A stretch of 64,000 nucleotides of DNA, taken from Pseudomonas entomophila (GTDB lineage: Bacteria; Pseudomonadota; Gammaproteobacteria; Pseudomonadales; Pseudomonadaceae). Below, piece after piece: positions 23,212-60,459 of the stretch; within the stretch, counting starts at the first letter, position 1, and every line of letters begins with the position of its first letter. The notes under the pieces were generated by a model that worked only from the letters and a program-made list of their open reading frames with translations, had not been told where the DNA came from and did no database searches. Location: positions 4,949,001 through 5,013,000 of the forward strand of contig NZ_CP070982.1 in assembly GCF_018417595.1 (NCBI RefSeq), given 5' to 3'. The translations under genes and the position numbers were made by a program.

Positions 23212-23301
23212 GGGGGATGTGGGATCAGCGGTTGATGATTTCAGCCGCTGGCCTGGTGATGACGAGCAGGTGCCCGCCTGAAGATTTGTAGTGGTGCGCA
23301 A

Positions 23302-23349
23302 ATCGAGCGCCGCCCGCGCGGCGCATCGCGGATGAATCCGCTCCTACAT
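23302..23349. repeat. Left arm of a 48-bp perfect REP inverted repeat flanking IS copy 1
   Basis: Begins ATCGAGCGCCGCCCGCGCGG and ends CCGCTCCTACAT. It is the exact reverse complement of 24872-24919 on the far side of the IS. Sequence inside the arms (GTTGCAACGTG, GGCCATGGTTG, GCCTTG) is also partly mirrored. Confidence 0.92.
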
Positions 23350-23427
23350 CGGTTGCAACGTGGCCATGACCGATAGGCCATGGTTGTTCGCCTTGTGGGC
23401 ACGACGCGGTTTTTCGGCTGGCGCTGC

Positions 23428-24789
23428 GGGACTGTCAGATTTTTTGTGTGCGGGCCGGTAACGGCCTGCCGTCAGGCAGGCCCTGATTCTCACCAGGTCG
23501 GCCTGATGAACCGATCTCCGTACAGAATCGCAAATTGATTCATCGCGCTTTTCCAATCATGGGCCGGTTTTCCCCAATTGGCTGTTATGTTGCGCAATCC
23601 CAGCCAAATCAGTTTGGTCGCTGCGTCATCATTCGGGAAATGCCCGCGAGTCTTGATGACCTTGCGTAGCTGGGCGTTGATGCTCTCGATGGCGTTGGTG
23701 GTGTAAATCACCTTTCTGATGGCCGGTGGGAAGACGAAAAATGGAATCACTCGATCCCAGGCGCGTCTCCAGGCAGCCACCACCGTTGGATATTTCTCGC
23801 CCCACGGCCCGTTCTCAAACTCATCGAGTGCTTGCTCAGCCGCTTCAGCATTAATGGCTTGGTAAATCGGCTTCAGCTCCTTGGCCAGAGCCCGCCGCTT
23901 GTCCCAGGCCGCGAAGTCGAGGCTGTTGCGGATCAGGTGCACGATGCACGTTTGCAACGTCGTCTCTGGAAACACGGCACTGAGAGCCTCTGGCATACCT
24001 TTGAGGCCATCGGTCACGGCAATCAGCACATCTTCGACACCGCGCGTCTTGAGATCGTTAAAGACCTTCATCCAAAACTTCGCGCCCTCGGTGTTCTCGA
24101 TCCAGATGCCCAGGATATCCCGCGTCCCGTCGGGGAGGACGCCCAGGGCCAGGTAAATGGCCTTGTTGCGCACCAGGCCCTCTTCGCGGATCTTCACCCG
24201 CAGTGCATCGAAGAAAATGACCGGGTACATCGGCTCCAGTGGCCGCTGTTGCCACGCGCCAATCTCGTCCATGACCTCGTCTGTCACAGAGCTGATGAAG
24301 TCGGGTGAGACCTCTGTTCCATACTGCTCGGACAAAAAGGCTCGGATCTCTCTGACCGTCATTCCACGGGCGTACATGGCGATGATCTTGTCATCGAAAC
24401 CGGTGTACCGCCGCTCGTGCTTGGGGATCAGAATGGGCGAAAAACTGCCGTCTCGATCGCGAGGAATTTCCAGCCGCAGTGGGCCATCCCCCGTTAAAAC
24501 CGTCTTGCCACTCTTGCCGTTACGCTGGTTGGTTTCATCCTCTGGGCGCTGCGCGCCCGGCGGATAGCCCAGGTGGTGGCCAAGCTCGGCATGCAGAGCG
24601 CGTTCGATCAGGGCCTTCTTGAACGCCGCAGAGGCATCCTCGATAGCTTCTGCGGTCATCAGGCCCTCACCGAACTGCTCCAGCAGCTCTTTGGGGATTT
24701 TGGGCAGGTCACGCAAGGGTTTCTTTTTGGTTGGCATACATGCACCTCTTACTCATGTTATGCCCGAACACAAAATTTCTGACACCCTC
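23428..24789 (-). mobile_element. IS256-family insertion sequence, copy 1 (1,362 bp)
   Basis: Complete element. Terminal inverted repeats about 28 bp: left GGGACTGTCAGATTTTTTGT and right (reverse complement) GAGGGTGTCAGAAATTTTGT, continuing to CGGGC on both sides. The 8-bp direct repeat GGCGCTGC flanks it at 23420-23427 and 24790-24797, as expected for target duplication. One transposase gene fills it on the minus strand. A near-identical copy is at 59006-60366. Confidence 0.93.
23490..24737 (-). CDS. IS256-family transposase (copy 1)
   Basis: 415 residues. DDE catalytic triad of the Transposase_mut family: Asp177 (VIFFDALRVK), Asp243 (AVTDGLKG) and Glu351 (TTNAIESINAQLRK), with the family's CxxHxxR motif at 264-270. 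Start ATG at 24737 follows AAGAGGTGC. The protein is identical to that of copy 2. Looks intact and probably active. Confidence 0.95.
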   Translation of the reverse strand: MPTKKKPLRDLPKIPKELLEQFGEGLMTAEAIEDASAAFKKALIERALHAELGHHLGYPPGAQRPEDETNQRNGKSGKTVLTGDGPLRLEIPRDRDGSFSPILIPKHERRYTGFDDKIIAMYARGMTVREIRAFLSEQYGTEVSPDFISSVTDEVMDEIGAWQQRPLEPMYPVIFFDALRVKIREEGLVRNKAIYLALGVLPDGTRDILGIWIENTEGAKFWMKVFNDLKTRGVEDVLIAVTDGLKGMPEALSAVFPETTLQTCIVHLIRNSLDFAAWDKRRALAKELKPIYQAINAEAAEQALDEFENGPWGEKYPTVVAAWRRAWDRVIPFFVFPPAIRKVIYTTNAIESINAQLRKVIKTRGHFPNDDAATKLIWLGLRNITANWGKPAHDWKSAMNQFAILYGDRFIRPTW

Positions 24790-24871
24790 GGCGCTGCCGC
24801 CGCCCCGCTCGGCTCACGCCATGCGCCAAGGCAGGCAACCATGGCCTTGCAGGTGCGGCACGTTGCAACAA

Positions 24872-24919
24872 ATGTAGGAGCGGATTCATCCGCGATGCGC
24901 CGCGCGGGCGGCGCTCGAT
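24872..24919. repeat. Right arm of the 48-bp perfect REP inverted repeat
   Basis: Begins ATGTAGGAGCGGATTCATCC and ends GGCGGCGCTCGAT; exact reverse complement of 23302-23349. The IS lies between the arms. Confidence 0.92.
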
Positions 24920-25010
24920 CTGATAGGCGCTGAAGATTCTGTGGCTGGCCCTCTCGCCCACAACGCCGATCAAAAATGCCCCCCAAGAACCACCAGAAAA
25001 TCAGACTAAG

Positions 25011-25133
25011 CCGATTTCTTGTAGTCCATTTCCCAAACATACTCCCGCCCCCCTCCGAGCCATTGCGGTGTTCCCAGTTGGCCTCTAGTCTCGGCCGGTC
25101 GCTGCGAAATCAGTGACCGGCTTTGACAGGCCG
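25011..25133 (+). promoter_or_regulatory. Conserved leader element A upstream of the DUF3077 gene
   Basis: About 120 bp that align with a diverged copy on the minus strand at 26131-26253. Shared blocks: CCGATTT-TTGTAGTC-ATTTCCCAAA at the start, CATTGCGG, CTAGTCTC, and GGCTTTGACAGG at the end. A 7-bp stem GCCGGTC/GACCGGC (25094-25100 with 25115-25121) follows the CTAGTCTC block. I read this as a promoter plus a structured 5' leader; that is inference. The gap 24798-25362 holds this element, the small ORF after it, a REP arm and a REP pair; nothing else was recognised. Confidence 0.5.
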
Positions 25134-25149
25134 ACCTAGGTTCATTCCC

Positions 25150-57581: not shown

Positions 57582-58781
57582 TTACAGCTCGACGCAGTCG
57601 AACTTCACATCGGTGGCCACGTCTTCGTCATAGTTGACGTCAGCACGCTCGAAGCCGAACAGGTTGAGGAACTGCTTCTTGTAACCGGCGTAGTCGGTCA
57701 GTTCGAACAGGTTCTCGGTGGTCACCTTCGGCCACATGGCACGGCAGGCGTCCTGCACGTCATCACGCAGCTCCCAGTCGTCCAGACGCAGACGGCCTTC
57801 GTCGTCCAGGGCCGCCGGCGCACCGTCCTCACGGTACATGCGGTCACGGAACATGCGGTCCAGCTGGTGCTGGGTACCTTCGTGGATACCCTTCTCCTGC
57901 ATGATCTTGAACACCATCGACAGGTACAGCGGCATCACCGGGATCGCCGAACTGGCCTGGGTAACCACCGACTTCAGCACCGCAACGTTGGCACTGCCAC
58001 CGACTTTCTTGCCCAGGCGCTGGGCGGTTTCGTCCAGGTCCTGCTTGGCCTTGCCCAGCGCGCCGTCCCAATAGATCGGCCAGGTGATGTCGGAGCCGAT
58101 GTAGCTGAAGGCCACGGTGCGAGCCTGCGGCGCCAGCACGCCAGCGGCGTTCAGGGCATCGATCCACAGCTCCCAGTCCTGGCCACCCATGACAGTGACG
58201 GTGTCGGCGATTTCCTGCTCGGTGGCCGGCTCGATGCTGGCCTCGATGATGGTGTCCTTGTTGGTATCGATGGCGGTCGATTTGTACGGCTTGCCGATTG
58301 GTTTGAGTGCCGAACGCACCAGCTCACCGGTCTGCGGCAGCTTGCGCACCGGCGAGGCCAGGGAGTAGATGACCAGGTCGACCTTGCCGCCCATTTCGTT
58401 CTTGATCAGCTCGATCACTTTGGCGCGGGCTTCGTCGGAGAAGGCGTCACCGTTGATCGACTTGCTGTACAGGCCTTCGGCCTTGGCGAACTTGTCGAAG
58501 GCGGCAGCGTTGTACCAGCCGGCGGTACCGGCCTTGGTCTCGGTGCCCGGCTTTTCGAAGAACACGCCCAGGGTGTCGGCCTTGAAGCCGAACGCCGCGG
58601 TGATGCGCGCGGCCAGGCCGTAGCCGCTGGAGGCGCCGATCACCAGGACCTTCTTCGGACCATCCTCGCGCACGCCCAGCTTGCGGGTGGCTTCGATCTG
58701 GTCACGGACGTTGAGCTCGCAGCCCTTGGGGTGAGTCGTGGTGCAGATGAAACCGCGAACCTTGGGATGAATGATGGCCAA
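57582..58781 (-). CDS. fabV: Enoyl-[ACP]/trans-2-enoyl-CoA reductase FabV
   Basis: 399 residues, NADH-dependent reduction of trans-2-enoyl-ACP in fatty-acid elongation. N-terminus [20 protein letters not shown] is the family's; Rossmann [12 protein letters not shown] (49-60); active site Tyr237-x8-Lys246 ([10 protein letters not shown]). The start is TTG at 58781, set by the conserved N-terminus and GAGG 8 nt upstream; no ATG fits. FabV enzymes are insensitive to triclosan. Confidence 0.95.
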
Positions 58782-58971
58782 TGTCTGTACCTCGTCAGGT
58801 TTAGGCTGGGGAAACGCCCACATCAGGGGGCGGCTCCGTTTGATCTAGAGGGTGAGACTACCCTCGTGGGATATCCGACACATATTACGGGGTGATTCGC
58901 ATTGCTGCATTGTCTGCACGGCCCCATTCGCCGGCAAGGCCGGCTCCTGATCTTGAGGCTGGCGCGGTCCG

Positions 58972-59005
58972 GTGGGAGCGGCCTTGTGTCGCGAAAGGGC
59001 TGCGC
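58972..59005. repeat. Left half of a REP pair interrupted by IS copy 2
   Basis: GTGGGAGCGGCCTTGTGTCG then CGAAAGGGCTGCGC, whose end is the IS target duplication. The matching right half is at 60424-60456. Another REP-like stem, TTCGCCGGCAAGGCCGGCTC, is at 58929. The gap 58782-59005 holds only these repeats. Confidence 0.88.
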
Positions 59006-60366
59006 GGGAGTGTCAGTTTTTTTGTGTGCGGGCCGGTAACGGCCTGCCGCCAGGCAGGCCTTGATTTCACCAGGTCGGCCTGATGAACCGATCTCCGTAC
59101 AGAATCGCAAATTGATTCATCGCGCTTTTCCAATCATGGGCCGGTTTTCCCCAATTGGCTGTTATGTTGCGCAATCCCAACCAAATCAGTTTGGTCGCTG
59201 CGTCATCATTCGGGAAATGCCCGCGAGTCTTGATGACCTTGCGTAGCTGGGCGTTGATGCTCTCGATGGCGTTGGTGGTGTAAATCACCTTTCTGATGGC
59301 CGGTGGGAAGACGAAAAATGGAATCACTCGATCCCAGGCGCGTCTCCAGGCAGCCACCACCGTTGGATATTTCTCGCCCCACGGCCCGTTCTCAAACTCA
59401 TCGAGTGCTTGCTCAGCCGCTTCAGCATTAATGGCTTGGTAAATCGGCTTCAGCTCCTTGGCCAGAGCCCGCCGCTTGTCCCAGGCCGCGAAGTCGAGGC
59501 TGTTGCGGATCAGGTGCACGATGCACGTTTGCAACGTCGTCTCTGGAAACACGGCACTGAGAGCCTCTGGCATACCTTTGAGGCCATCGGTCACGGCAAT
59601 CAGCACATCTTCGACACCGCGCGTCTTGAGATCGTTAAAGACCTTCATCCAAAACTTCGCGCCCTCGGTGTTCTCGATCCAGATGCCCAGGATATCCCGC
59701 GTCCCGTCGGGGAGGACGCCCAGGGCCAGGTAAATGGCCTTGTTGCGCACCAGGCCCTCTTCGCGGATCTTCACCCGCAGTGCATCGAAGAAAATGACCG
59801 GGTACATCGGCTCCAGTGGCCGCTGTTGCCACGCGCCAATCTCGTCCATGACCTCGTCTGTCACAGAGCTGATGAAGTCGGGTGAGACCTCTGTTCCATA
59901 CTGCTCGGACAAAAAGGCTCGGATCTCTCTGACCGTCATTCCACGGGCGTACATGGCGATGATCTTGTCATCGAAACCGGTGTACCGCCGCTCGTGCTTG
60001 GGGATCAGAATGGGCGAAAAACTGCCGTCTCGATCGCGAGGAATTTCCAGCCGCAGCGGGCCATCCCCCGTTAAAACCGTCTTGCCACTCTTGCCGTTAC
60101 GCTGGTTGGTTTCATCCTCTGGGCGCTGCGCGCCCGGCGGATAGCCCAGGTGGTGGCCAAGCTCGGCATGCAGAGCGCGTTCGATCAGGGCCTTCTTGAA
60201 CGCCGCGGAGGCATCCTCGATAGCTTCTGCGGTCATTAGGCCCTCACCGAACTGCTCCAGCAGCTCTTTGGGGATTTTGGGCAGGTCACGCAAGGGTTTC
60301 TTTTTGGTTGGCATACATGCACCTCTTACTCATGTTATGCCCGAACACAAAATTTCTGACACCCTC
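59006..60366 (-). mobile_element. IS256-family insertion sequence, copy 2 (1,361 bp)
   Basis: Same element as 23428-24789, same orientation. Left end GGGAGTGTCAGTTTTTTTGT, right end as in copy 1. Flanked by the 8-bp direct repeat GGCTGCGC at 58998-59005 and 60367-60374. A few base differences and a one-base length difference near the transposase stop distinguish the copies. Confidence 0.94.
59067..60314 (-). CDS. IS256-family transposase (copy 2)
   Basis: 415 residues, identical in protein sequence to copy 1 (Asp177, Asp243, Glu351; CxxHxxR at 264-270). The differences from copy 1 that I see in the gene are silent (for example at 60056, 60208 and 60237). Confidence 0.95.
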   Translation of the reverse strand: MPTKKKPLRDLPKIPKELLEQFGEGLMTAEAIEDASAAFKKALIERALHAELGHHLGYPPGAQRPEDETNQRNGKSGKTVLTGDGPLRLEIPRDRDGSFSPILIPKHERRYTGFDDKIIAMYARGMTVREIRAFLSEQYGTEVSPDFISSVTDEVMDEIGAWQQRPLEPMYPVIFFDALRVKIREEGLVRNKAIYLALGVLPDGTRDILGIWIENTEGAKFWMKVFNDLKTRGVEDVLIAVTDGLKGMPEALSAVFPETTLQTCIVHLIRNSLDFAAWDKRRALAKELKPIYQAINAEAAEQALDEFENGPWGEKYPTVVAAWRRAWDRVIPFFVFPPAIRKVIYTTNAIESINAQLRKVIKTRGHFPNDDAATKLIWLGLRNITANWGKPAHDWKSAMNQFAILYGDRFIRPTW

Positions 60367-60407
60367 GGCTGCGCAGCAGCCCCCGGATTCCAGTGTTGAC
60401 ACAAAGA

Positions 60408-60459
60408 TCGCCGGGGCCGCTATGCGGCCCTTTCGCGACACAAGGCCGCTCCCACAAGT
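60408..60459. repeat. Right half of the REP pair interrupted by IS copy 2
   Basis: GCCGGGGCCGCTATGCGGCC hairpin then CCCTTTCGCGACACAAGGCC and GCTCCCAC, the reverse complement of the left half at 58972. Confidence 0.85.

What the first reader, a model, noticed from the sequence alone, without database searches (positions are those of the whole stretch)
58972..60459. Second IS copy sits in the loop of a different REP hairpin
Joining the flanks of copy 2 restores GGGCTGCGCAGCAGCCC, a perfect stem-loop (GGGCTGC, GCA, GCAGCCC), inside a REP unit whose mate follows at 60424. Two of two copies in the window target REP palindromes of different sequence, so the shared feature is the fold. REP-targeting is documented for some other IS families in Pseudomonas; I do not recall it for IS256 relatives.
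Basis: partly seen in the sequence, partly recalled or inferred. Interest (0 to 1): 0.7.

Follow-up and report, generated by a model that had tools for sequence, protein, structure and literature searches.

The report
IS256-family insertion in a REP hairpin
A common jumping gene has landed in a small palindromic repeat of a Pseudomonas-type chromosome; the other landing sites examined show a weak taste for a symmetric DNA sequence and some excess of such repeats, not a general search for DNA hairpins.

Summary
In detail: an IS256-family element (59006-60366, 8-bp duplication GGCTGCGC) splits GGGCTGC-GCA-GCAGCCC in the first REP of an inverted pair, and a relative has the empty site. The inference that 'the shared feature is the fold' fails. 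The genome has 14 copies; 1 of 12 restored sites is in a REP (14-mer mask covering 6.5% of intergenic bases). Of 108 restored sites of related elements, 6 have a >=6-bp stem centred within 4 bp of the duplication centre, against 4.1% of intergenic controls; half-sites do not covary. IS1182/IS4 elements of the genus give 5 of 11 by the same rule and 10 of 11 at >=5 bp, where this group gives 15 of 108. The sites share a weak mirror-symmetric flanking consensus, holding in each of six subgroups left out. A residue remains: REPs 13 of 108 (4.8% in flanks, 9% in the home genome) and this hairpin type 5 of 108 (0.13% and 0.84%), not explained by the consensus. REP association of an IS256-family element (ISRm5) is already in print. 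Modest interest.

The parts
58972..59005 (+). Left part of the interrupted REP unit (GTGGGAGCGGCCTTGTGTCGCGAAAGGGCTGCGC); left arm of the second hairpin 58997-59003
   Evidence: sequence; REP 14-mer mask; empty orthologue
58998..59005 (.). 8-bp target duplication GGCTGCGC, left copy
59006..60366 (-). Complete IS256-family element, copy 2 (four copies in this genome, this one included, are 100.0% identical)
   Evidence: ends and duplication; copies; identity
59067..60314 (-). Transposase gene, 415 aa, Mutator/IS256 family
   Evidence: ORF; PF00872 412.4 bits; NF033543 406.9 bits against cut-off 150
60367..60374 (.). 8-bp target duplication GGCTGCGC, right copy
60375..60382 (+). Rest of the second hairpin (last loop base and right arm GCAGCCC)
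   Evidence: sequence
60413..60456 (-). Inverted mate REP with its own second hairpin GGGCCGC-TAT-GCGGCCC; with the first REP it forms a 115-bp imperfect palindrome
   Evidence: sequence; self-complementarity
23428..24789 (-). Copy 1 of the same element, duplication GGCGCTGC at 23420-23427 and 24790-24797
23299..24922 (.). Copy 1 with the interrupted 254-bp imperfect palindrome around it (arms 23299-23427 and 24798-24922, converted from restored-site coordinates)

Best explanation
An ordinary IS256-family element of the ISPsy17 group. The target is cut 8 bp apart (shown: 8-bp duplications). Each half of the target contributes a weak, mirror-image sequence preference just outside the duplication, about 5'-G-n-R-t-C-g-[S n6 S]-c-G-a-Y-n-C-3' (shown statistically; that it reflects contacts of a two-fold-symmetric transpososome is inferred). 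Palindromic repeats can match both halves, so some REP and attenuator-like hairpins are good sites; no extruded hairpin is needed (inferred). Most of the copies found lie between genes, where REPs also lie, and this adds to the REP excess (inferred). Copy 2 in the second hairpin of a REP is one such site.
For: Family and ends. Duplication: 103 of 108 unique restored sites have 8 bp. Consensus: symmetrised counts over 103 sites, G=37.7 at -2 (C 46%), 24.6 at -4, 22.8 at -6, 19.1 at duplication base 1; in 83 sites outside REP/hairpin hot spots 29.8, 18.4, 20.9 and 14.7. A matrix from those 83, leave-one-out, puts sites at median percentile 0.81 of intergenic controls (KS p 4e-14); 20 hot-spot sites not used in it have median 0.84; 7 of 9 hits on the two recurrent hairpins score 0.86-0.99 (L139 0.76, L144 0.56). 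Six subgroups (101 sites) left out in turn score above control, medians 0.71-0.94, KS p 0.014 to 2e-8. No half-site covariation. Intergenic: 12 of 12 home sites, 95 of 108 overall by the same caller.
Against: The consensus does not account for the REP excess: weighting intergenic windows by the matrix moves the expected number of 108 only from 5.1 to 5.3 for REPs (13 seen) and from 0.14 to 0.19 for the second hairpin (5 seen); with home-genome densities 9.7 to 10.2 and 0.91 to 0.88. L001 itself scores 0.885, not extreme. Long palindromes hold 23 of 108 sites against 8.6% of flank positions, though 16.3% of home-genome intergenic positions. Short stems show a small excess: >=4 bp 39 of 108 against 24.9%, >=5 bp 15 of 108 against 8.7%. 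For the sister element ISPsy17 the published alignment found no obvious consensus except a C or T 24 nt downstream (PMC3189936, passages); for ISCth4 and IS256 A/T-rich targets are reported (PMC7780238, passages).
Confidence: 0.7

Rival explanations
1. The transposase recognises the folded target: cruciform or single-strand hairpin tips of REPs of any sequence.
For: Restored hairpins at copy 2; L002 (CCTGA-GCGA-TCAGG) and L191 (CCCCTC-CGGA-GAGGGG) also have hairpins on the duplication; recurrent hits on two hairpin types; copy 1 is 2 bp from a long palindrome's centre; stems >=5 bp 15 of 108 against 8.7%, P 0.048. ISCth4, an IS256-family element, integrated efficiently only into supercoiled target (PMC7780238, passages).
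Against: Stems >=6 centred within 4 bp: 6 of 108 against 4.1%; >=7 with one mismatch 7 of 108 against 4.1%; >=8 with one mismatch 0 of 108 against 1.7%. Mean folding energy at sites not special, z -0.5; no half-site covariation; long-palindrome centre within 5 bp 3 of 108 against 1.7% (flanks) and 2.9% (home genome). Hairpin targeters found in the genus look different: 10 of 11 IS1182/IS4 sites have a stem of 5-11 bp at offset 0 or 1 bp, 5 of 11 one of >=6 bp.
Confidence: 0.08
2. REPs attract the element through a bound host factor or local supercoiling (gyrase, IHF), not through sequence or fold read by the transposase. (Not exclusive with the best explanation.)
For: REP excess over flanks (13 of 108 against 4.8%), with coverage falling from 13.7% at 0-4 bp to 7.3% at 61-100, 3.0% at 101-200 and 4.9% beyond 200 bp; 7 of 12 home sites have intergenic repeats within 30 bp against 18.4% of controls; PMC1525189 discusses such factors for 'type 2' associations (passages).
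Against: Against home-genome REP density the excess is not significant (13 of 108 against 9%, P 0.17-0.22; 1 of 12 at home). The second-hairpin peak is sharp (5.4% at 0-4 bp, 0.9% at 16-60), sharper than a diffuse factor predicts. No factor was tested.
Confidence: 0.2
3. Survivorship only: REPs sit in harmless intergenic spaces, so surviving copies are found near them; no target bias towards REPs. (Not exclusive with the best explanation.)
For: 12 of 12 home sites and 95 of 108 overall are intergenic, against 13.5% intergenic in 464 kb of home sequence; REP occupancy at home is near its density (1 of 12 against 6.5%).
Against: Does not predict recurrent hits on one 17-bp hairpin type (4 of 107 without the window's own, P 1e-5 by flank density and 0.013 by home density), nor the flanking consensus.
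Confidence: 0.3

Closest known systems
ISPsy17 (IS256 family, Pseudomonas syringae; PMC3189936, passages read)
   Same: IS256 family, very similar 28-nt ends, mostly 8-nt duplication, similar length (1374 nt); this element matches at 78.3% DNA a plasmid stretch annotated with that name
   Different: Published as without obvious target consensus, 'might insert randomly'; here 103 pooled sites of the wider group show a weak symmetric one
ISRm5 (IS256 family, Sinorhizobium meliloti; PMC1525189, passages read)
   Same: IS256-family element associated with REPs (5 of 7, type 2: near or adjacent, not at one fixed place)
   Different: In the home genome here REP occupancy is near the REP density (1 of 12 in a REP)
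ISPsy8, ISRm22, ISPpu9, ISPpu10 (type 1 REP targeters; PMC1525189, passages read)
   Same: REP as target; ISPsy8 and ISRm22 at a palindrome axis
   Different: All copies at one REP position; here 1 of 12 copies is in a REP
IS1272/TnSha1 of the IS1182 family (PMC4923244, passages read)
   Same: Hairpins as targets
   Different: There integration is reported always to be into hairpins; here 6 of 108 by the test used

Membership tests
IS256 family | IS256-type transposase (Transposase_mut) | tested here: met
   PF00872 412.4 bits; NF033543 406.9 bits, cut-off 150
IS256 family | imperfect terminal inverted repeats | tested here: met
   GGGAGTGTCAGTTTTTTTGTGTGCGGGC against GAGGGTGTCAGAAATTTTGTGTTCGGGC (ends printed)
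IS256 family | 8-9 bp target duplication | tested here: met
   8 bp at 103 of 108, 9 bp at 2, 7 bp at 3; places without a duplication had been dropped
IS256 family | DDE catalysis through a circular intermediate | not testable with these tools
   biochemistry; described for ISCth4 (PMC7780238, passages)
Type 1 REP-targeting IS | every copy at one fixed REP position | tested here: not met
   1 of 12 home sites in a REP; positions in REPs vary in relatives
Type 2 REP-associated IS | copies preferentially near REPs | tested here: inconclusive
   4 of 12 within 50 bp against 18.2% of intergenic bases; repeats within 30 bp 7 of 12 against 18.4%
Hairpin-targeting IS (IS1182 type) | insertion at the hairpin whatever its sequence | tested here: not met
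   stems >=6 bp 6 of 108 against 4.1%; >=5 bp 15 of 108 against 8.7%; positive controls 5 of 11 and 10 of 11

The most novel reading that the evidence does not exclude
Members of this IS256 subgroup choose targets by two signals: a weak symmetric sequence read by the transposase, plus a true attraction to a few conserved intergenic hairpins (the REP second hairpin GGGCYGC-NNN-GCRGCCC and the CGCC-TTA-GGCG hairpin of a TwoAYGGAY-like repeat), for example because these extrude or are gyrase-bound.
Probability: 0.2. Interest if true: 0.5.

Novelty: new member of a known kind. Interest (0 to 1): 0.3.

Why it matters
It tests a tempting two-site inference with a 108-site survey and in-genus positive controls: landing in a palindrome is not evidence for reading a fold, because a symmetric weak consensus also favours palindromes. 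It gives a testable target consensus for an element group of which one member was described as possibly inserting at random, and leaves one open residue: why the same REP second hairpin is hit repeatedly.

Tried and rejected
Self-complementarity centred on the duplication (first 75 sites): weak rise (3.39 against 3.00 +/- 0.18), which fits the symmetric consensus. Folding energy of 44-nt windows: no signal. A REP mask of 14-mers gave no enrichment at home; a looser BLAST repeat measure gave 4 of 12 over and 7 of 12 within 30 bp of repeats seen 3 or more times (12.3% and 18.4% of controls). Long-palindrome centres within 10 bp: 7 of 108, against 2.6% in flanks and 6.1% at home, so not decisive. 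Rfam on eight loci found TwoAYGGAY matches in L125 and L159 only; the link of the TTA hairpin to it in the other loci is by sequence likeness. Phage records: no match.

Limits. The hot-spot set and the TTA-hairpin pattern were chosen after seeing the sites, so their P values are optimistic; the REP head patterns came from general knowledge and from sites already seen; the second-hairpin pattern came from the window, and without it the count is 4 of 107. The flank densities are from the 103 sites with an 8-bp duplication, the observed counts from all 108. The gene caller was trained on the home genome and used on relatives too. The control elements are four multi-copy groups (21 sites) out of the PF01609 matches; single copies were not examined, and their duplication lengths were set by me. 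A first wording of this report gave the positive control as 10 of 11 by the >=6-bp rule; by that rule it is 5 of 11, and 10 of 11 holds at >=5 bp. For that I moved the confidence from 0.72 to 0.70 and that of the fold rival from 0.07 to 0.08.

Literature: ten searches (5.39 million open papers). Passages of five papers were read (PMC1525189, PMC3189936, PMC4923244, PMC7780238, PMC11708052); the rest were seen as listings only. No paper is claimed to be absent beyond those searches. Gene names beside the IS (fabV, LysR) and the REP label are by my reading or recalled, from no family call.

Full report
WHAT IS THERE. The window is 4949001-5013000 of a complete 5.96-Mb chromosome (G000) of Pseudomonas type (by its relatives' record titles). 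Copy 2 of the IS occupies 59006-60366 with an 8-bp duplication GGCTGCGC on both sides. Its long gene, 59067-60314 on the minus strand, is an IS256-family transposase. Joining the flanks restores GGGCTGC-GCA-GCAGCCC at the 3' part of a REP that begins at 58972; an inverted mate REP with its own second hairpin follows (about 60413-60456). The two staggered cuts fall one in the loop and one at the base of the stem, so 'in the loop' is half right.

EMPTY SITE. Relatives' loci for the gene at 57582-58823 (fabV by my reading) were fetched (24 of 76 genomes matched). Of the eight best other loci aligned, one (L216, G025) keeps the whole arrangement without the IS and aligns in one piece across the junction, 86.4% over 1959 columns; the other seven do not align across it. 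Its second hairpin reads GGGGTGC-AAA-GCGCCCC: a C-G pair of ours is G-C there, so the hairpin looks like a conserved part of this REP. That bears on the REP, not on the IS.

HOW MANY COPIES. The genome holds 14: 13 full and one truncated. Twelve have a recognisable duplication. All 12 restored sites are intergenic by a gene caller trained on this genome, where 13.5% of the sampled 464 kb is intergenic. One of 12 is inside a REP by a 14-mer mask that covers 6.5% of intergenic bases; 4 of 12 are within 50 bp (18.2%). Three of 12 lie in a long imperfect palindrome against 16.3% of intergenic positions, P 0.31. A looser measure, an intergenic repeat (3 or more hits) within 30 bp, gives 7 of 12 against 18.4%, P 0.0024. 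Copy 1 is 2 bp from the centre of a 254-bp palindrome but 75 bp from the nearest REP 14-mer.

SURVEY. Related elements (about 72-100% DNA identity) were collected from genome contigs (best 80 of 420), genus and family searches and per-genome searches, with extra stretches. Of 181 full-length BLAST places, many of them the same place fetched twice, 108 unique sites with a duplication could be restored; 103 of these have 8 bp. One of the 108 is an insertion into another copy of the IS. Among the 103, seven pairs are alike at 62% or more over 60 bp, all by my reading REP or TTA-hairpin repeats.

THE FOLD TEST. A perfect stem of at least 6 bp centred within 4 bp of the duplication centre: 6 of 108 (L001, L101, L111, L139, L162, L191), against 4.1% of intergenic flank positions and 5.2% of home-genome ones. 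Stems of at least 7 bp with one mismatch: 7 of 108 against 4.1%; at least 8 with one mismatch: 0 of 108 against 1.7%. Local folding energy is not special (z -0.5). If targets had to fold about the duplication centre, the two half-sites would covary; 448 complementary pairs are seen and 441.4 +/- 17.5 expected when right halves are re-dealt among the 103 sites (p 0.37); without hot spots 353 against 352.8. Small stems are a little in excess (>=4 bp 39 of 108 against 24.9%, P 0.006; >=5 bp 15 of 108 against 8.7%, P 0.048).

POSITIVE CONTROLS. To see whether the test can find hairpin targeting, other multi-copy elements of the same genomes were taken (PF01609). An IS1182-family element (G258, 4 sites) and two IS4-family elements (G121, 3 sites; G084, 4 sites) (named) sit on hairpin tips: 10 of 11 have stems of 5 to 11 bp at offset 0 or 1 bp, 5 of 11 stems of at least 6 bp; the eleventh has an imperfect stem. 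A G182 element gave at most 5 bp in 10 sites. For IS1272, of the IS1182 family, hairpin targeting is in print (PMC4923244, passages). The window's element behaves differently: 15 of 108 at 5 bp or more.

WHAT THE SITES SHARE. Read on both strands, the sites show a mirror-image preference outside the duplication: C at -2 (46%, T 10%), G at -6 (41%), purine at -4, T at -3, G at -1, and G or C at the first duplication base. It is present at similar frequencies in 83 sites outside REP/hairpin hot spots. A matrix from those 83 ranks left-out sites at median percentile 0.81 of intergenic controls, and 20 hot-spot sites, not used for it, at 0.84. Leaving out each of six groups in turn gives medians 0.71-0.94 and KS p from 0.014 down to 2e-8. 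In ISPsy17, the nearest named relative found here, earlier authors saw no obvious consensus in their insertions with a perfect 8-nt duplication, except a C or T 24 nt downstream, and thought insertion might be random (PMC3189936, passages); pooling made a weak pattern visible here. A symmetric preference naturally favours palindromic DNA, so REP hits need no cruciform (inference).

WHAT IS LEFT OVER. REPs (head motif plus 40 bp) cover 13 of 108 duplication centres; 5.1 are expected from intergenic flanks and 9.7 from home-genome density. The second-hairpin pattern GGGCYG..CRGCCC covers 5 of 108 (L001, L101, L112, L139, L141), against 0.14 expected from flanks and 0.91 from home density. Weighting by the consensus changes these little (5.3, 10.2, 0.19, 0.88). 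Without the window's own site it is 4 of 107, P 1e-5 or 0.013. A CGCC-TTA-GGCG hairpin covers 4 of 108 (0.07% of flank windows), chosen after the fact. So a REP-hairpin bias beyond consensus and chance is likely in some relatives and not shown in the home genome. Survivorship in harmless spaces, uneven REP density between genomes, and a host factor or supercoiling at REPs all remain possible; ISCth4, another IS256-family element, integrated efficiently only into supercoiled target (PMC7780238, passages).

COMPARISON WITH WHAT IS KNOWN. PMC1525189 (passages) lists REP-associated elements in five IS families including IS256 (ISRm5, 5 of 7, type 2) and notes ISPsy8 and ISRm22 at palindrome axes. 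A P. fluorescens IS481-family element inserts at one position of REPs (PMC11708052, passages). The present element is a new member of a known kind: IS256 family by each of the three features tested, not a type 1 REP targeter, not a hairpin targeter.

VERDICT. Observation right in its letters, over-generalised from two sites; the fold claim is not supported; a weak symmetric target consensus is the better explanation, with an unexplained recurrence on the REP second hairpin.

Noticed in passing
L261, L263, L265, L267 (G258): An IS1182-family element sits 4 of 4 times in the tetraloop of terminator-like hairpins such as AAAAGGGCCC-CGAA-GGGCCCTTTT; the 4-bp duplication is the loop itself.
   Followed up: partly
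L242, L247, L251 (G121): An IS4-family element at the centre of terminator-like GC hairpins followed by T runs, with direct repeats of about 10-12 bp; 3 of 3, one of them imperfect.
   Followed up: partly
L249, L253, L256, L259 (G084); L109, L125, L138, L144: An IS4-family element (4 of 4) and this IS256 group (4 of 108) hit the same kind of CGCC-TTA-GGCG hairpin; Rfam calls TwoAYGGAY beside the site in L125 and in L159.
   Followed up: partly
L014, G000:C1:2452275-2452872: Truncated copy (about 600 bp of the left end) inside a REP-like repeat, with a 6-bp GGCGCT on both sides although the right end is missing.
   Followed up: no
L013, G000:C1:3960934-3962291: Full-length copy without a recognisable target duplication, as could follow recombination between copies.
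   Followed up: no
L164, L168 (G258): Partial and full copies of the element in tandem, and one copy inserted in another.
   Followed up: no
window 25085-25137 (L006 3153-3205): Rfam match to c4-a1b1 (targets of C4 antisense RNA), 64.3 bits, about 300 bp from copy 1.
   Followed up: no
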